A stretch of 64,000 nucleotides of DNA from Sporomusa sphaeroides DSM 2875 (GTDB lineage Bacteria > Bacillota > Negativicutes > Sporomusales > Sporomusaceae): assembly GCF_001941975.2 (NCBI RefSeq), contig NZ_CP146991.1, positions 2,404,524 to 2,468,523 on the forward strand, read 5' to 3'. This document shows, piece after piece, positions 2,160-41,676 of this stretch. Position numbers and translations under genes: made by a program. Position 1 is the first letter of the stretch; each line of letters starts with the position of its first letter. A model generated the notes under the pieces. The model ran no database searches. It was not told the origin of the DNA and was given only the letters and a program-made list of their open reading frames with translations.

Positions 2160-2454
2160 TAAAAACTCCCGTCCCCTAAAAGGACGAGAGTTAATCTCGC
2201 TGTACCACCTTTGTTGTCCGCCTGCCGGCAAAACATCGTAATAAAGTACAGGCCTAACGCCGATACTCTCCTTCGCTGCTAACGGTGAAGGTCTCCGGCT
2301 CCGCCTACCATCCGGACAAAGGTACCGGATTTCAGCAAGCAACTCCAAGGTGAACTTCAGCATACCAACCCGTACCGGTTCTCAGCATTTTCCGGTTCTC
2401 TGTAGCGGCAATAGATATACTTACTTTTCCTCTTCATAGTCTTTAATTGCTATT
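2160..2454 (-). promoter_or_regulatory. T-box leader, phenylalanine specifier
   Basis: T-box riboswitch in the 5' leader of pheA. Read on the minus strand it has stem I elements, a specifier-loop context GAAG-TTC-ACC with the Phe codon TTC at 2354-2352, the T-box core GGTGGTACAGCG (about 2210-2199), and a terminator (2192-2160: ACTCTCGTCC/GGACGGGAGT followed by TTTTT). Uncharged tRNA-Phe is expected to pair with TTC and with UGGU of the T-box to prevent termination. Confidence 0.9.
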
Positions 2455-3854: not shown

Positions 3855-4424
3855 TTATCTTACCTTAACAAGAAAATTCTCCAGTATTTTATTTCCTTGG
3901 GGCGTCAGAATAGACTCAGGATGGAACTGCACTCCTTCTACATCATACTTGCGGTGTCTAAGGCCCATAATTAAATCATCCTGCGAACTGGCCGTAATTT
4001 CCAGGCAGTCAGGCAGTCCTGCTTTATCAACAATCAGTGAGTGATATCTGCCGGCAGTAAACGGCTTGGGTAAATCACGGTAAATGCCCTGCCCCCGGTG
4101 AATAATGTACTCGGCTTTGCCATGCACAGGCTGCGGTGCACGAACCACCTGCCCGCCAAATACTTCACCGATAGCCTGGTGGCCAAGACAAATTCCCAAT
4201 ATGGGAACTTGTCCGGCAAACCGTTCGATAACCGCTTTACTAATACCCGCATTTGCCGGAGTTCCAGGTCCGGGTGAAATAATGATCCCGCGATATCCCG
4301 CTCCGGCAATTTGTTCTATGGTAGTCATGTCATTGCGAATGACTGTTGCCGGATAGCCCAGACCAGCCACATACTGATACACGTTATAGGTGAACGAGTC
4401 ATAATTATCGAGCAGTAAAATCAT
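3855..4424 (-). CDS. trpG: Anthranilate synthase glutamine amidotransferase subunit
   Basis: Class I glutamine amidotransferase that supplies ammonia to TrpE for anthranilate synthesis. 189 residues, starting MILLLDNYDSFTYNVYQYV, with the nucleophile in GICLGHQ near residue 79 and the catalytic HPES near residue 168. It overlaps trpE by four bases (ATGA) and is the last gene of the trp operon. I saw no separate pabA in this window, so it may also serve folate synthesis (inference). Confidence 0.93.
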   Translation of the reverse strand: MILLLDNYDSFTYNVYQYVAGLGYPATVIRNDMTTIEQIAGAGYRGIIISPGPGTPANAGISKAVIERFAGQVPILGICLGHQAIGEVFGGQVVRAPQPVHGKAEYIIHRGQGIYRDLPKPFTAGRYHSLIVDKAGLPDCLEITASSQDDLIMGLRHRKYDVEGVQFHPESILTPQGNKILENFLVKVR

Positions 4425-5905
4425 GTTATCGGAGCCTCCTCCAGCAATTGCATTAATACCCGGGCTTTATTCATAATTTCCCGGTATTCCATTTCAGGTA
4501 TGGAATCGGCGACAATACCCGCCCCGGTCCGAACCGTCACCTGCTGTTTGTCAATCATCAGCGTACGGATGGTAATACACGTATCCATATTACCGCTGAA
4601 ATCAAAGTATCCAACCGCGCCGGCATAAGGACCGCGAATATCCCCCTCCAGTTCGTGAATGATTTCCATGGCCCGCACTTTAGGTGCACCACTCACCGTA
4701 CCTGCCGGAAAGCAGGCGGTGAGCACATCCACAGCCGAAAACTCAGGCGCCAGCTGCCCGGACACCTCTGACACAATATGCATGACATGGGAGTATTTTT
4801 CCACTTCCATCAGCCTGTCAATATGCACCGTTCCCGGCAGGCTAATCCGTCCTAAATCATTGCGGCCAAGGTCGACAAGCATGGCATGTTCGGCCCTCTC
4901 TTTGATATCGGCCAGCAGTTCCCCGGCCAGCCGATCATCTTCTGCCGCGCTCTCACCCCGGCGGCGCGTTCCGGCAATCGGACAAGTCAATACTTTGTTG
5001 TCTTCCAGCTTGACCAGCCGTTCCGGCGAAGCCCCGACAAGCTGCCGTTCGCCAAAGTTAATATAAAACATGTACGGCGAGGGATTGGCTTGCCGCAGCC
5101 GCCGGTATAGCGAAAACGGCGGACTGGCTAACCGGTAGTAAAAAGGGCGTGACAGCACGACCTGAAATAATTCTCCTGCCGCAATGTATTCTTTGGCCTG
5201 TTCTACCATCGCCAGATATTGTTCTTTACCCGGTACCGCCTCCCCGACTCTGTCGGCTGCCACCGGCCGGCCTGTCTGCTCTGACTCATCCTCAGGCAAA
5301 GAAACAGGCTGTTTAAGCTTAGCCGCTAATTCCGTCAGTTCCCGTACTGCCAGGTCATAGGCGCCAGCGGCCTGAGCAGTTGACGCGACATGCACCAAAT
5401 TTATCAGTCTGGTAGAATGAGTCAGATGATCCATAACCAGGATGTATTGGCAAACCATTTGCTCGATAAGCGGCAATTCATCCGGAATATCCAGGCCACG
5501 TACCCGTTCCCAGGACACTACCGCTTCATAGGCGGCATATCCCACCGCGCCACCGGCAAAAGGCGGCAGTTCCGGCAGCTTGGGCATAGAAAACTTCTTT
5601 AAAAAATCTTTGAACACCAGATGCGGTTTGCCGTTCTCCTGTGTTGAACATTCGCCAACTGTTATGTCAGCCCGGTTTTTGCAGGCGGTAAAAACAGCCA
5701 GCGGCTTTGTACCGATAAAAGAATACCGTCCAAAGGTCTTGCCTGTCTGCGCACTTTCCAAAATAAATCCCGGACTTTCTCCCACCAGTTTGTAATACAG
5801 GGAAACCGGAGTTTCCAAATCGGTAGACAATTCCATGGTAACAGGCAATAACGTATATTGATCAGCTAACTGGCAAAATTCCTCCTTGCCCGGATATATT
5901 CGCAT
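4421..5905 (-). CDS. trpE: Anthranilate synthase component I
   Basis: Chorismate-using subunit that makes anthranilate with TrpG. About 494 residues. The N-terminal half carries the tryptophan-binding ILES motif (residues near 45) linked to feedback inhibition; the C-terminal half is the chorismate-binding domain with CPIAGTRRRGE and the GTVSGAPKVRAMEII signature. I start it at the ATG at 5905, which overlaps the trpA stop as TGATG; a GTG at 5917 would add four residues. Translation is probably coupled to trpA. Its position near the end of the operon, after trpA, is unusual. Confidence 0.93.
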   Translation of the reverse strand: MRIYPGKEEFCQLADQYTLLPVTMELSTDLETPVSLYYKLVGESPGFILESAQTGKTFGRYSFIGTKPLAVFTACKNRADITVGECSTQENGKPHLVFKDFLKKFSMPKLPELPPFAGGAVGYAAYEAVVSWERVRGLDIPDELPLIEQMVCQYILVMDHLTHSTRLINLVHVASTAQAAGAYDLAVRELTELAAKLKQPVSLPEDESEQTGRPVAADRVGEAVPGKEQYLAMVEQAKEYIAAGELFQVVLSRPFYYRLASPPFSLYRRLRQANPSPYMFYINFGERQLVGASPERLVKLEDNKVLTCPIAGTRRRGESAAEDDRLAGELLADIKERAEHAMLVDLGRNDLGRISLPGTVHIDRLMEVEKYSHVMHIVSEVSGQLAPEFSAVDVLTACFPAGTVSGAPKVRAMEIIHELEGDIRGPYAGAVGYFDFSGNMDTCITIRTLMIDKQQVTVRTGAGIVADSIPEMEYREIMNKARVLMQLLEEAPIT

Positions 5906-6699
5906 CAGCAGCCACACTCCCTGTCCAGCGCCTGTCTGAGCGAATGGGTAAACTCCGCTGCCGCCTCAACCCCGTCCTGCATCAGCCGCTCCATAACAGC
6001 GCTGCCGACGATGACTGCGTCAGCGTGCTGAGCCGCTTGACAGGCGGCAGCCGGGCTGCCGATGCCAAAGCCGATAGCCAGGGGTAAATCTGTTTCCCGG
6101 CGGACAGCCGCTAACAGCGGCGCTAACTGCTGGTAGTCAATCTGTCGCACACCAGTGACTCCGGTACTTGAAATACAATACAAGAAGCCGGAAGCCTGCC
6201 GGTAAATGTCTTTTAATCTGGCAGGAGTGGTGGTAGGAGCAAGAAACCGGATGAGGTCAAGACCGGTCTTAAGGCAGGCAGGTTCTACGGCACTTGCCTC
6301 TTCCAGCGGCACATCAGGAATAATTAATCCGCTAACACCGGCCTGGGCAAAGTCAGCGGCAAACCTTTCCGCCCCATATTGCAGTACCGGATTGTAATAG
6401 GTCATAACTGCCAGCGGTATGGAGGCTTCCCGCCTGATATGCGCTGTCAATTCCAGTAACTTGCCGGTGGTTGCGCCTGCCGCCAGCGCCTGGGTTGCTG
6501 CCTGCTGGATGATAGGACCATCGGCCATGGGATCGGAAAACGGCAGTCCGAGTTCGATTATGTCGGCGCCGGCGGTTGCCAGTGCCTTCACGGTCTCAAA
6601 CGTAACATGGTAATCGGGATAACCGGCTGTCAGATAAATAATTAAGCCTTTGCGCCCCGCCGCTTTCAAATCGCATAATTTTTCCGTTATCTTGCTCAT
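5905..6699 (-). CDS. trpA: Tryptophan synthase alpha chain
   Basis: Cleaves indole-3-glycerol phosphate to indole and glyceraldehyde-3-phosphate; indole passes to TrpB. 264 residues, TIM barrel, with the catalytic Glu in [14 protein letters not shown] near residue 48 and the Asp region near 60, and the phosphate-binding GFGIGSP loop near residue 210. It overlaps trpB by ATGA at its start and trpE by TGATG at its end, so the three are translationally coupled. Confidence 0.95.
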
Positions 6700-7877
6700 A
6701 TCCGTCCCTCCAATACATCGGCCACCATCTGCACATCTTTGTCGCCCCGCCCTGACAGGCAGACAACAATCGCATCCGTTTCCTTGGTCTGCGGCATTAA
6801 TTCTTCCAGGTACGCCAAAGCGTGTGAACTTTCCAGGGCCGGGATGATTCCCTCCAGCCGCGCCAGCTGTTGAAAAGCAGCCAGTGCCTGCTTATCGGTA
6901 ACCGACGTGTAGGTTACCTGTCCGCTATCTTTGAAGCAGGCATGTTCCGGCCCAACTCCCGGGTAGTCAAGACCGGCTGATATAGAGTAAGCCGGAATAA
7001 CCTGACCTTCACCATCCTGCCGGAGATAGCTTAGAGCTCCGTGCAGTACACCCGGCCTGCCGTGGGTCAATGAGGCCGCATGTTCACCGGTGTTAAGCCC
7101 TTTGCCGGCAGCCTCGACGCCAATCTTACGAACTGCCGCGTTATCTCGGAATGGATAAAAAATTCCCATGGCATTGCTGCCGCCGCCAACACAAGCAACC
7201 ATATATTTTAGCTCAGCCCCAATTTCTTCAACCTGCCGGGCGACTTCCCGGCCGATAACTGCCTGAAAGTCTCTTACAATCATCGGATACGGATGCGGGC
7301 CGACTACTGAGCCAATAATATAGTGGGTATCCTGAATATGGGTTACCCAGTACCTGATGGCTTCACTGGTAGCATCTTTAAGCGTACCGCTGCCGCTGGT
7401 GACCGGTATGACTTGTGTACCTAACAGGCGCATGCGGAAAACATTCAGCGCCTGTCGCTCCATATCTTCCTGGCCCATAAAAACGCAGCACTCCATGCCA
7501 AACAACGCCGCCACCGTGGCGCAGGCTACCCCATGCTGACCGGCGCCGGTTTCGGCGACAATACGTTTCTTCCCCATTCTCCTGGCTAAAAGTGCTTGAC
7601 CAATGGCGTTGTTAATCTTGTGGGCGCCGGTATGGAGCAAATCTTCCCGTTTCAGATAAATTTGTCCCCGTCCATAATGCTGTGTCAGCTTGGCGGCATG
7701 ATACAACCGGGTGGGACGCCCGGCATATTCATTAAAGTAAAACTCCACTTCAGCTTGAAAGCCGGCATCCGCTTGTAAGGCACGATAGCTTTCCTCCAGT
7801 TCAATCAGGGCCGGCATAACCGTCTCAGGCACAAACCGGCCGCCGTAGCTGCCAAATCTTCCATTCTTATCAGGCAT
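6696..7877 (-). CDS. trpB: Tryptophan synthase beta chain
   Basis: PLP enzyme condensing indole with serine to give tryptophan. 393 residues starting [18 protein letters not shown]. The PLP lysine lies in [10 protein letters not shown] near residue 87, and the glycine-rich phosphate loop GGGSNAMG near residue 230. Start chosen at 7877 on an AAGGGAGA ribosome binding site; it overlaps the end of trpC by 8 bases. It is a canonical TrpB1 type and pairs with the adjacent trpA. Confidence 0.95.
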
Positions 7878-8667
7878 TATTGTCTCTCCCTTCCTCTTTA
7901 GCACTTAGCAAAGCAAGCTCGCGGGTTTTAGCGGCAATATCCCCGGCCGTTACCAGTCCTTCGCCTACCAATATGCCGTTTACTCCAGCCTGTTTCAGTC
8001 TTAGCGCGTCTTGACTGGTCGTAATGCCGCTTTCGCTGATAAGCAAACGCCCTCCCGGTTCATAATAGGGCAGCAAGGCAAAGGTTTGCTCGATACTGGT
8101 GGCAAAGGTCTCCAGATTGCGGTTATTGACGCCTATCAGTTTAGCCGTTGTCTGCTGTACCTGCTGTAGTTCCGGCAGGGTGTGCACTTCCACCAAGGCG
8201 TCCATCCCCAGATCGGCGGCAACCCCGATAAAGCGGCCAAGCTCGTCTGCGGTCAATATGGCAGCAATAAGCAGTACAGCATCGGCTCCTGCTGCCCGGG
8301 CTGCATAGAGCTGGTATTCGTCAAGGATAAATTCCTTACATAACACCGGCAAATCAACCATTTGCTTTACCCTGGCAATATCGTCAATACTGCCGCGAAA
8401 AGCGGCATTGGTATGCACCGATAACGCGGCGGCGCCATGGGCGGCAAACATTCGGGCAAGCTCCGGTACCGAATAGCCGCCACACAGCGTTCCTTTAGCC
8501 GGCGATGCCAGCTTGCACTCGGCAATCAGTGTCCAGTCACGCTGCTTAACAGCCTCACTAAAAGCATAATTTCCGGTTACTATATCCTGCTCGATAACCG
8601 CAAGCGGTTTGTTTTGTTTAGCCAAGGCTACCGCCTGTCTGGTCTGATCGACAATACTATTTAGCAT
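7870..8667 (-). CDS. trpC: Indole-3-glycerol phosphate synthase
   Basis: Closes the indole ring from CdRP. 265 residues with the TIM-barrel motifs [13 protein letters not shown] near residue 50, [13 protein letters not shown] near residue 110, [11 protein letters not shown] near 180 and LLISESGI near 210, which carry the catalytic Lys and Glu residues. Not fused to TrpF. Starts at 8667, overlapping the trpF end by 11 bases. Confidence 0.95.
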
Positions 8668-9280
8668 TTTGGCCTATCCCCCCTTTGGCTGCCGTGATGA
8701 AGCGTTTAATTTTTTCAATATCCTTTATCCCGTTGGTTTCCACACCGCCGGATACGTCAACGCCGTCAGGCCCGAGAACGGCAATTGCCTGCGTCACATT
8801 TTCCGGGGTGAGACCTCCTGCCGCCAGCAGCGGTCTTGGTGCCTGCTTAACCAGCGTTTGTGCTGCCTGCCAGTCAAAGACCCTGCCTGTTCCCCCTTGC
8901 ACCCCGGCAGTAAAGCTGTCAAACAAAGTCCATGATGTCCGATACCCGTTGAAAGCAGTTGCACTAAAACCCGAACCAATTCTAAAGGCCTTAATCACCG
9001 GATAACCAACCAGGCGGCAATACTCAGGCGGTTCATCACCATGCAACTGCACATAATCCAGCTTGCATGCTGAGGCTGCCTCCCGCACTTCAGTCAGCGG
9101 CGCATTAACAAATACGCCGACCTTACCAATTTGCGAAATCCGGCAGGAAATTTTTCTGGCCTCTGCCAGTGTAATACGCCGTTTACTTGGTGCAAACACA
9201 AAACCAATCCAATCTGCGCCAAAATCATAGGCTGCCAGCGCTGCCTCCAGGGTAGTGATACCACAAATTTTTACGATAAT
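8657..9280 (-). CDS. trpF: Phosphoribosylanthranilate isomerase, apparent ATT start
   Basis: Isomerises phosphoribosylanthranilate to CdRP. The downstream open frame from a GTG at 9199 lacks the catalytic N-terminus. Reading upstream in the same frame gives (I)IVKICGITTLEAALAA then YDFGADWIGFVFAPSKRR, including the KICGIT segment with the catalytic Cys that the family requires. No ATG, GTG or TTG exists in frame between this segment and the preceding GGGAGGAGGG ribosome binding site. The codon 7 bases after AGGAGG is ATT at 9280-9278, giving 207 residues, the family length. It overlaps the trpD stop by 10 bases. Motifs DYVQLHGDE, GGTGRVFDW and LAAGGLTPENV are intact. Confidence 0.85.
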   Translation of the reverse strand: MIVKICGITTLEAALAAYDFGADWIGFVFAPSKRRITLAEARKISCRISQIGKVGVFVNAPLTEVREAASACKLDYVQLHGDEPPEYCRLVGYPVIKAFRIGSGFSATAFNGYRTSWTLFDSFTAGVQGGTGRVFDWQAAQTLVKQAPRPLLAAGGLTPENVTQAIAVLGPDGVDVSGGVETNGIKDIEKIKRFITAAKGGIGQNAK

Positions 9281-10308
9281 GCCAATCCCTCCTCCCGATA
9301 CCTTTGCGTAAACGTCCTTAATGCCGCCAACTTGCCCAAGGCAGCGCCGGTATCAATGCTTTGCGTCGCTAACTGCAGCCCTTCCCTGATATCTGCCGCC
9401 GCCTCGGCAACAACCAAAGCTGCGGCGGCATTTAGCAGAACGATATCGCGTTTAAAGCCTTGCTCGCCGTTTAGTAAGGCAAGAATAATCCGGGCATTGT
9501 CTGCCACGGTGCCGCCCCGGTAATCAGCCTGGGTACAGGCGTTAAACCCATAGGCTGCAGGGTCAATTACATAGGAGCGTATTTCCCCTTTGCATACTTC
9601 GGCAACCTTTGTCGGCATGGCTGTTGATATTTCATCAAGCCCATCCAGGCTGTGCACAACCATCGCCCGGGTTACTCCCAGTTCGGCAAGTGCCTGCGCG
9701 GTTTTGTCTGTCAGGGCCGGATCATACACCCCGATTAGCTGGCAATGAGCGCCTGCCGGATTGGTCAGCGGGCCCAGCAAATTGAACACGGTTCGAAACC
9801 CTAGCTCCTGCCGCGGCTTGACAGCATATTTCATGGCCTGGTGAAAGCGGGGGGCAAAGATAAAGCCGACGCCAATGGTATCAATAGCCTCTGCCACTCC
9901 CTGCGGCGGCAGCTCCAGTTCTACTCCCAGAGCCTTTAGCACATCGGCACTGCCGCACGAACTGGACACACCACGATTGCCGTGTTTGGCCACATTCAGC
10001 CCGGCTCCTGCCAATACAAAGGCAACTGCTGTCGATATATTAAAAGTTCCGCGTTGATCGCCCCCGGTGCCGCAGGTATCAATTAACCTGGGGGCTTTGC
10101 ATTCGATCCTGAGGGCCTGACTGCGCATGGTCTCGGCAAAGCCGGCCACCTCCAAGCTTGTTTCGCCCTTCATGCGCATAGCAGTCAAAAAGGCGGCAAT
10201 CTGGGCTTCACTGCTCTGTCCTGACATGATTACCTGCATGGCGTTTCTGGCTTCCTCACGGGAAAAATGCCGACCGGCTACTGCCTGAGAAAGATAATCC
10301 TTTAACAT
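9271..10308 (-). CDS. trpD: Anthranilate phosphoribosyltransferase
   Basis: Transfers phosphoribose from PRPP to anthranilate. 345 residues, with the PRPP-binding DTCGTGGD motif near residue 80, NISTA near 92, and KHGNRGVSSSCGSADVLKALG near 107-127 (anthranilate and Mg sites). Start at 10308 (MLKDYLSQ) has GGAGG nine bases upstream; an ATG at 10329 would lie against the terminator. It is the first gene of the trp operon, immediately after the Trp T-box. This differs from the common order that begins with trpE. Confidence 0.93.
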   Translation of the reverse strand: MLKDYLSQAVAGRHFSREEARNAMQVIMSGQSSEAQIAAFLTAMRMKGETSLEVAGFAETMRSQALRIECKAPRLIDTCGTGGDQRGTFNISTAVAFVLAGAGLNVAKHGNRGVSSSCGSADVLKALGVELELPPQGVAEAIDTIGVGFIFAPRFHQAMKYAVKPRQELGFRTVFNLLGPLTNPAGAHCQLIGVYDPALTDKTAQALAELGVTRAMVVHSLDGLDEISTAMPTKVAEVCKGEIRSYVIDPAAYGFNACTQADYRGGTVADNARIILALLNGEQGFKRDIVLLNAAAALVVAEAAADIREGLQLATQSIDTGAALGKLAALRTFTQRYREEGLALS

Positions 10309-10330
10309 AATGTCCAGCCTCCTTTGCATA

Positions 10331-10701
10331 AAAAAAAACAGACCACTTCACCGAAAGGGGCGAAATGGTCCGCGGTACCACCCTATTTTGAAAAATACAG
10401 TCAATTGGGTAAATAAAAAGACCACTTCACCCCAGGGGCGAAATGGTCGCGATACCACCCTATTTGAAAAGTCTGCACTTTTCCTTATTCAGGTACGGGA
10501 CAAAAATCCGATACCCTAGCCTGCTAACGGCGGCAGCCGGCCCAGCCTACTTGCAGTTGCTTTCGGTGGACAGCTCACAGGTCCATTCCATATGCTCTCC
10601 AGGCCGGTCATCACACCTCCGGAAATCCGGTCACCGGCTCGCTGAACTGAAGTGTACAAATGTACTCGTCCTGCTCACAGCTTTTTACACAAATTAACTT
10701 T
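10331..10701 (-). promoter_or_regulatory. Trp T-box leader with one specifier stem and two tandem T-box/terminator units
   Basis: On the minus strand there is one stem I with specifier context GGAA-TGG-ACC (Trp codon TGG at 10585-10583), then unit 1: AATAGGGTGGTATCGCG (about 10466-10449) and terminator GACCATTTCGCCCC/GGGGTGAAGTGGTC plus T-run (10448-10413). About 78 bases later comes unit 2: AATAGGGTGGTACCGCG (10388-10371) and a near-identical terminator with a nine-T run (10370-10331). No second stem I lies between them. Both cores read UGGU; bacterial tRNA-Trp usually carries G73, so a G-U pair may be used. Confidence 0.9.
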
Positions 10702-10707
10702 AGCGTT

Positions 10708-10736
10708 ATTCTATCCCATGTTTTTTGTTTTGTCAA
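10708..10736 (-). promoter_or_regulatory. trp operon promoter
   Basis: TTGACA (10736-10731), 17-base spacer, TAGAAT (10713-10708) on the minus strand. Near-consensus housekeeping promoter, with a start expected near 10701 at the beginning of the T-box leader. Confidence 0.8.
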
Positions 10737-41399: not shown

Positions 41400-41676
41400 T
41401 AAAAAGTCCCATCCCCTATACAGGGACGAGACTTTACTCGCGGTACCACCCTGCTTGCTTAAATAAATAGCAAGCCACTCTTTCAGGTACAGGAATTCCG
41501 ATACCCTAGCCTATGATAACGGTGGCCTCCGGCGCAGTCTACTTGTATTCCGTTCGACCTGCTGCTCACGGGTGTATTTCAATATGCACGCCTACCGGGT
41601 CACACCACCCCCCGGCTCTCTGATAATAGCGCAGCTAATTTACTTATCCCGTTCATTGCATTTGAATATGCTGTTG
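41400..41676 (-). promoter_or_regulatory. T-box leader, tyrosine specifier
   Basis: Minus-strand leader with stem I (AGAGAGCCGGGGGGTGG region), specifier context TGAAA-TAC-ACC with the Tyr codon TAC at 41576-41574, T-box core AGGGTGGTACCGCG (about 41452-41440), and terminator AGTCTCGTCCC/GGGGATGGGACT plus TTTTT (41434-41400). Uncharged tRNA-Tyr should allow read-through into aroF-tyrA. Confidence 0.9.

What the first reader, a model, noticed from the sequence alone, without database searches (positions are those of the whole stretch)
10331..10701. Trp T-box with a single specifier stem and a duplicated antiterminator/terminator
Two nearly identical T-box/terminator modules, about 78 bases apart, follow one stem I. 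One bound tRNA must either bridge twice or the second module acts as a second filter, which would steepen the response to uncharged tRNA-Trp. The close identity suggests a recent tandem duplication. Partial tandem T-boxes have been described for some trp operons, so the class is not wholly new. The UGGU core with the usual G73 of tRNA-Trp is a further oddity.
Basis: seen in the sequence. Interest (0 to 1): 0.6.

Follow-up and report, generated by a model that had tools for sequence, protein, structure and literature searches.

The report
T-box switch with two successive terminators
A tryptophan-gene RNA switch in a Sporomusa-like bacterium reads its tRNA once but can stop transcription at two places in a row, and one RNA strand that can pair first with one stop module and then with the next suggests a simple, testable way for a single tRNA to be checked twice.

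Summary
On the minus strand (10701-10331) a trp-operon leader holds one complete Trp T-box (RF00230, 109 bits, specifier UGG) and, 77 bases on, a second antiterminator/terminator without a stem I. It is no recent duplication: 9 of 9 sampled genomes of the genus have it before trpD, and two closely spaced T-box cores occur in 94 of 380 sampled genomes of the class (one false), before trp, serine and transporter genes, against 10 of 384 in the rest of the phylum sample.

New here: the linker before module 2 is complementary to the 5' strand and loop of stem III. This pairing (III*) would replace stem III, loop out module 1 and put module 2 in its place. Own linkers pair better than swapped ones in trp, symporter and SBP leaders and in 14 leaders outside the class (p 0.0002 each). 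In one triple-module leader both later linkers target the same strand. Against: weak or no signal in serine leaders; RNAalifold does not predict III*; column covariation is slight. I propose a strand-exchange relay in which one bound tRNA is tested twice. 'Partially tandem' T-boxes are in print with mode of action unknown.

The parts
10708..10736 (-). sigma-70-type promoter, TTGACA (10736-10731) - 17 nt - TAGAAT (10713-10708)
   Evidence: read by eye; not tested
10431..10687 (-). complete T-box leader: stem I, II, IIA/B, III, antiterminator 1
   Evidence: RF00230, 109 bits
10583..10585 (-). specifier codon UGG (Trp) in stem I (GAA-UGG-ACC)
   Evidence: sequence and Rfam alignment
10466..10483 (-). 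stem III of module 1 (local form); its 5' strand plus loop (10483-10473) is the shared strand
10434..10461 (-). antiterminator 1 with T-box core UGGUAUC
10411..10448 (-). terminator 1: hairpin 10448-10420, U run 10419-10411
10390..10400 (-). III* 3' strand (CUGUAUUUUUC), 11 bp with 10483-10473, pair probability 0.82 in the whole leader against 0.17 for local stem III
10356..10384 (-). antiterminator 2 with T-box core UGGUACC
   Evidence: RF00230 positions 183-216, 26.8 bits
10331..10372 (-). terminator 2: hairpin 10372-10339, U run 10338-10331
9271..10308 (-). trpD, first gene of the operon (likely start ATG at 10308 behind AGGAGG 10323-10318; longest ORF starts at 10329)
   Evidence: TIGR01245, 408.6 bits
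3855..9199 (-). trpF, trpC, trpB, trpA, trpE, trpG

Best explanation
A transcription-attenuating Trp T-box in which one anticodon-reading half serves two successive aminoacylation sensors (discriminators) by stem III strand exchange. Step 1: uncharged tRNA-Trp on stem I (UGG) inserts its GCCA end into antiterminator 1 beside stem III; terminator 1 is blocked and polymerase goes on (inferred from known T-boxes). Step 2: about 80 nt later a second 3' strand emerges, complementary to stem III's 5' strand and loop; the longer helix III* displaces local stem III and leaves module 1 as a looped-out domain (pairing supported here by comparison and folding; the exchange in real time is inferred). Step 3: antiterminator 2 now stands behind III* at the distance antiterminator 1 stood behind stem III, so the same stem-I-bound tRNA, or its replacement, is tested again; if charged, terminator 2 stops transcription (inferred). 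The likely benefit is lower basal read-through and a stricter test before a costly operon is expressed.
For: One full T-box per leader, second module without stem I: 20 of 20 chosen loci; 12 of 13 near full length, one of them, L191, only 43.9 bits. Window leader: III* 0.82, local stem III 0.17; energies -8.7 against -4.3 kcal/mol, and in prefix folds stem III holds at 0.96 or more up to nt 96, III* is 0.98 from nt 102, with mixed values at some later lengths. Ten Sporomusaceae trp leaders: 95.3% of III* cells paired; slid controls 28.7-49.6%. Own against swapped linkers: trpD p 0.0002 (n=20), 0.0002 (n=7 below 80% similarity), 0.043 (n=4); SSS symporter 0.0002 (31), 0.0002 (18), 0.027 (6); SBP 0.0002 (14), 0.013 (8), 0.11 (5) (0.0002 is the floor). 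Outside the class, 14 leaders of 10 genomes: -12.3 against -8.6, p 0.0002. The linker pairs with the stem III loop, which a mere copy of the hairpin would not: trpD p 0.006/0.022, SSS 0.0002/0.0002, serC 0.007/0.017. Triple leader L196: stem III 5' part against linker 2 z -3.5 (2/300 shuffles), against linker 3 z -7.4 (0/300). III* ends 6-8 nt before core 2 in 20 of 20 trp leaders (7 in 15); an AA follows it (20/20 trp, 28/31 SSS, 14/14 SBP, 38/39 serC, 18/18 serA). Published structures as reviewed in PMC7583486: without stem III the antiterminator does not bind tRNA appreciably, and 'RRRxG-stem III-AA' is conserved (passages).
Against: RNAalifold on three alignments (10, 20 and 31 leaders) did not predict III*; it pairs the two T-box cores with each other, as does the window's minimum-energy fold, where local stem III also forms; only the centroid shows III*. 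Column covariation is slight: 95.3% paired against 93.0% shuffled (2/500), covariation score 12/500, pairs changed on both sides 1 (152/500). serA: p 0.017 with all 18, 0.075 and 0.33 for reduced sets, loop test 0.43; serC fails the main test (0.28). SBP fails the loop test (0.14). The linker beats all six windows downstream of module 2 in 16/20 trp but only 9/31 SSS, 7/14 SBP, 6/39 serC, 9/18 serA. In the other triple leader (L163) linker 2 shows nothing (z -0.05). No experiment; tRNA hand-over is not shown.
Confidence: 0.6

Rival explanations
1. Fail-safe terminator: module 2 is a plain second terminator that catches leaking polymerase; its antiterminator is a relic without tRNA contact.
For: T2 is a strong hairpin with a U run; stronger than T1 in 12 of 19 trp leaders where both were called.
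Against: The T-box core of module 2 is intact, and in trp and serC more canonical than core 1 (middle C of ACC in 20 of 20 and 39 of 39), though the search pattern itself requires a core of GGTGGNAHCRYG; AA before it and the complement to stem III are kept. A terminator that tRNA cannot relieve would silence the operon.
Confidence: 0.13
2. Independent re-binding: module 2 captures the 3' end of the stem-I-bound tRNA by itself over a flexible linker; the III* complementarity is a by-product of duplication or composition.
For: No III* signal in serA and only partial signal in serC leaders, where module 2 is nevertheless kept; in L208 the linker carries a complete hairpin of its own (read by eye).
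Against: Loop complementarity cannot come from copying the hairpin; swapped and dinucleotide-shuffled linkers pair less well; triple leader L196; stem III is needed for tRNA binding (PMC7583486 passages).
Confidence: 0.2
3. Core-core pairing: the near-palindromic T-box cores pair with each other after module 1 is passed and hide both, so the second module resets or locks the leader off.
For: Predicted by RNAalifold and by the minimum-energy fold of the window.
Against: It follows from GGUACC being self-complementary, so it is expected for any two identical cores; the core columns are nearly invariant and give no covariation; the window centroid prefers III*.
Confidence: 0.07

Closest known systems
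T-box riboswitch, transcriptional class (RF00230)
   Same: Stem I with specifier, stem III, antiterminator with T-box bulge, competing terminator before an amino-acid gene.
   Different: A second antiterminator/terminator follows on the same stem I, and the linker can form an alternative stem III.
'Partially tandem' T-boxes (one sentence in PMC7583486, passage; Gutierrez-Preciado 2009 and Vitreschak 2008 recalled, not held)
   Same: Part of a T-box leader repeated on one transcript.
   Different: The passage says modes of action are unknown and gives no anatomy; whether the older surveys list this exact arrangement or these taxa I could not check.
Fully tandem T-boxes (PMC12452182, abstract and passages; PMC9413887, passage)
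   Same: Two regulatory units in series, enriched at trp genes; a sharper response has been proposed.
   Different: There each unit has its own aptamer; here only one stem I. Full tandems also occur in a relative: two Trp stem I's 331 bases apart (G080, loci L202/L222).
Tandem riboswitches with several expression platforms (PMC9481103, passages)
   Same: Serial decisions that steepen or tighten a response.
   Different: Those combine two or more aptamers; here one ligand-reading half drives two platforms.

Membership tests
T-box leader (RF00230) | Match to the covariance model over its full length above the gathering score | tested here: met
   109 bits against 93, model 1-219
T-box leader (RF00230) | Specifier codon that fits the regulated pathway | tested here: met
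   UGG before trpDFCBAEG
T-box leader (RF00230) | T-box bulge able to pair with the NCCA end of the cognate tRNA | tested here: met
   UGGU with GCCA, last pair U.G wobble; two tRNA-Trp genes found, both G73; found by pattern, not by a full tRNA scan of the genome
T-box leader (RF00230) | Antitermination by uncharged tRNA | not testable with these tools
   needs in vitro transcription
Fully tandem T-box | A second stem I between the modules | tested here: not met
   about 32 nt of linker; Rfam gives model 183-216 only for module 2
Partially tandem T-box | One stem I followed by more than one antiterminator/terminator | tested here: met
   the definition is taken from the term in PMC7583486, which does not spell it out
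Partially tandem T-box | Both modules respond to the tRNA | not testable with these tools
   inferred from conservation only

The most novel reading that the evidence does not exclude
Partially tandem T-boxes are strand-exchange relays: stem III's 5' strand is handed from one discriminator's 3' strand to the next as RNA emerges, so one stem-I-bound tRNA is interrogated two or even three times (III, III*, III**), a co-transcriptional proofreading of the charging state.
Probability: 0.45. Interest if true: 0.82.

Novelty: new variant of a known kind. Interest (0 to 1): 0.66.

Why it matters
[quoted passage not shown] The shared stem III strand turns that into a direct test: break one linker strand and ask whether terminator 2 loses its tRNA response, then restore pairing from the other side. 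If true, one ligand-reading half of an RNA switch can drive several outputs in order by strand exchange, a design useful beyond T-boxes. The survey also shows the arrangement to be common in one bacterial class (94 of 380 sampled genomes, one false) rather than a curiosity.

Tried and rejected
Rejected: recent duplication; a hidden second stem I. Module 1 as the specially degenerate copy: its AUC/AAC bulge also occurs in single-module trp leaders (of 8 single-module trpD leaders, 5 AUC, 2 with GGTGGTACAGCG, 1 ACC), so only 'module 2 keeps ACC in trp and serC' stands. Modules reading different tRNAs: both tRNA-Trp genes found have G73, and U and C both fit. A separate stem III in each linker as a general rule: local hairpins near core 2 are no commoner than in shuffled linkers for trp, SSS, SBP and serC, slightly commoner for serA (10 of 18 against 6.5 expected).

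Led nowhere: two tRNA patterns with wrong spacing; RNAalifold for III*. Rows dropped: of 126 double-core rows L129 was dropped as a coding repeat; L138 (no ORF found), L155 and L157 (wrong frame picked) were assigned to gene groups by hand from sister genomes, L183 and some serA rows by reading the protein. In one search, 1 SSS and 2 SBP rows fell out because no hairpin was found, and for a few trp rows (for example L065, L074) RNAfold chose a hairpin other than stem III. In one search L189 (class member) and repeated windows were left out, and L195, L196 and L201 have similar stem III sequences, so they are not independent. L163 and L196 are triple leaders counted as two rows each.

Literature: seven searches of an open-access library found no account of a mode of action for partial tandems; the two main surveys and one review are not held.

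Full report
What is there. On the minus strand the leader of a trp operon (trpD-F-C-B-A-E-G) has one full T-box match (10687-10431, 109 bits) and one antiterminator-only match (10388-10356, 26.8 bits) to RF00230. The specifier is UGG. The two T-box cores start 77 bases apart and each is followed by a strong hairpin and a U run. Window, genome and relatives point to Sporomusa: named relatives from a trpD search are Sporomusa silvacetica, malonica, acidovorans and sp. KB1 plus metagenome bins, and Sporomusa is a member of Negativicutes.

How widespread. Six of six Sporomusa-like named loci with a readable leader (L025-L029, L031) have both modules; the next relative, L030, has one. A pattern of two cores 67-97 bases apart hits 11 of 12 family genomes, 94 of 380 class genomes with 0 of 380 for the backward pattern (one of the 94 is a coding repeat), and 12 of 398 phylum genomes, of which two belong to the class, that is 10 of 384 outside it, with 1 of 398 for the backward pattern. 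All nine genomes of the genus have it before trpD. I fetched 126 double-core rows on 122 loci; 125 remained: trpD 20, serA 18, serC 39, a serine-type aminotransferase 3, sodium:solute symporter (SSS) 31, ABC-type binding protein (SBP) 14 (Pfam for examples). In the window's genome 3 of 24 T-boxes have a second core: trp, serC and serA. At least two leaders have three modules, L163 in the class and L196 outside it. Two trp leaders with spacing 107 (L208, L210) lie outside the pattern, so the counts are lower bounds. Single-module trp leaders also exist in the class (8 found), so the state has been gained or lost repeatedly.

One stem I. In 20 chosen loci Rfam gives one full T-box each. In 13 loci outside the class it gives one near full-length match in 12, of which 8 pass the gathering score and L191 has only 43.9 bits; L192 gives partial matches only.

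The shared strand. In the window GAAAAGUGCAG (10483-10473, stem III 5' strand plus loop) is complementary over 11 bases to CUGUAUUUUUC (10400-10390), 7 bases before core 2. In the whole-leader ensemble this helix, III*, has probability 0.82 and local stem III 0.17. Its energy is -8.7 against -4.3 kcal/mol; in folds of growing prefixes stem III is at 0.96 or more up to nt 96 of the stretch and III* at 0.98 at nt 102, with mixed values at some later lengths and 0.97 at the end. In ten Sporomusaceae trp leaders 95.3% of the cells of a 13-pair III* form standard pairs, against 28.7-49.6% when slid, but against 93.0% when letters are shuffled among sequences (2/500), with few two-sided changes.

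The stronger test swaps linkers between leaders of one gene group: trpD p 0.0002 (n=20), 0.0002 (n=7 below 80% similarity), 0.043 (n=4); SSS 0.0002, 0.0002, 0.027 (n=31, 18, 6); SBP 0.0002, 0.013, 0.11 (n=14, 8, 5); serC 0.28, 0.44, 0.20; serA 0.017, 0.075, 0.33. A decayed copy of a hairpin pairs with the original for trivial reasons, so I also asked for complementarity to the loop, which a copy would lack: trpD 56 of 90 loop bases against 40.7 expected (p 0.006; 0.022 for 8 leaders), SSS 78 of 142 against 43.8 (p 0.0002), serC 96 of 212 against 70.9 (p 0.007), SBP p 0.14, serA p 0.43. Fourteen double rows from ten genomes outside the class, not used to form the idea, gave own -12.3 against swapped -8.6 kcal/mol, p 0.0002. 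In the triple leader L196 the stem III 5' region pairs with linker 2 (-16.0, z -3.5) and still better with linker 3 (-25.7, z -7.4, 0 of 300 shuffles); in the triple L163 only linker 3 does so (z -2.5).

Reading. PMC7583486 (passages) reports that without stem III the antiterminator does not bind tRNA appreciably and that purines flanking stem III (RRRxG before, AA after) line the tRNA contact. Module 2 keeps the AA (20/20 trp, 28/31 SSS, 14/14 SBP, 38/39 serC, 18/18 serA) and the distance from III* to core 2 is 6-8 nt in 20 of 20 trp leaders, like the 6-7 nt from stem III to core 1 in 15 of 20, the others being 4, 5, 8, 12 and 12, where RNAfold chose another hairpin in some. The simplest account is that module 2 becomes a working discriminator by borrowing the 5' strand of stem III. 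The same stem-I-bound tRNA could then be tested twice.

Results against this reading. RNAalifold does not predict III*, the minimum-energy fold of the window pairs the two cores and keeps local stem III, the serine leaders show little, and against windows downstream of module 2 the linker wins in 16 of 20 trp but 9 of 31 SSS, 7 of 14 SBP, 6 of 39 serC and 9 of 18 serA leaders (1 in 7 expected). The relay may therefore hold for trp and some other leaders only. The 0.0002 values are the floor of 5000 permutations and several groups and cut-offs were tried.

Further patterns. The bulge trinucleotide ACC is altered in module 1 (AUC or AAC) in 18 of 20 trp and 30 of 39 serC leaders, while module 2 has ACC in 20 of 20 and 39 of 39; serA has AAC in module 1 in 18 of 18 and in module 2 in 10 of 18; SSS and SBP have ACC in module 1 in 31 of 31 and 13 of 14. 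Trp leaders use U or C as the variable base, fitting G73 of both tRNA-Trp genes found. Two single-module UGG T-boxes of the same genome (L016, L018) use UGGC; L016's protein matches the Trp transporter family TrpP only weakly (20.4 bits, below cut-off, 70 residues given). A transporter-first, biosynthesis-later hierarchy is possible but untested.

Known or new. Partially tandem T-boxes are named in print with unknown mode of action (PMC7583486). The 2025 survey of contiguous riboswitches defines tandems by two aptamers (PMC12452182, passages), so by that definition these leaders would not count. I found no account of the mode of action in seven searches of an open-access library; the two surveys most likely to list such leaders are not held. 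I rate this a new variant of a known kind.

Noticed in passing
2177-2446 (-): Another T-box (109 bits), specifier apparently UUC (Phe), core UGGUACA, before a prephenate-dehydratase-like gene; single module.
   Followed up: partly
41419-41665 (-): T-box (134.7 bits), specifier apparently UAC (Tyr), before a gene that looks like a DAHP synthase (identity recalled from its N-terminus).
   Followed up: no
L171, L168, L079 and other SSS symporter leaders: Terminator 1 uses the T-box core itself as its 5' strand: at least 6 core bases pair with the terminator 3' strand in 28 of 31, against 1 of 20 trp leaders. The two modules of these leaders are of different design, so not simple copies.
   Followed up: partly
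L202/L222 (G080 contig 22): Two complete Trp T-box leaders 331 bases apart: a full tandem in the same class.
   Followed up: no
trpD, serC, serA double leaders: Middle base of ACC in the T-box bulge altered in module 1 but kept in module 2 in trp and serC; single-module trp leaders often have AUC too. Unexplained.
   Followed up: partly
3855-10329 (-): Gene order trpD-F-C-B-A-E-G, with trpE and trpG at the far end from the promoter.
   Followed up: no
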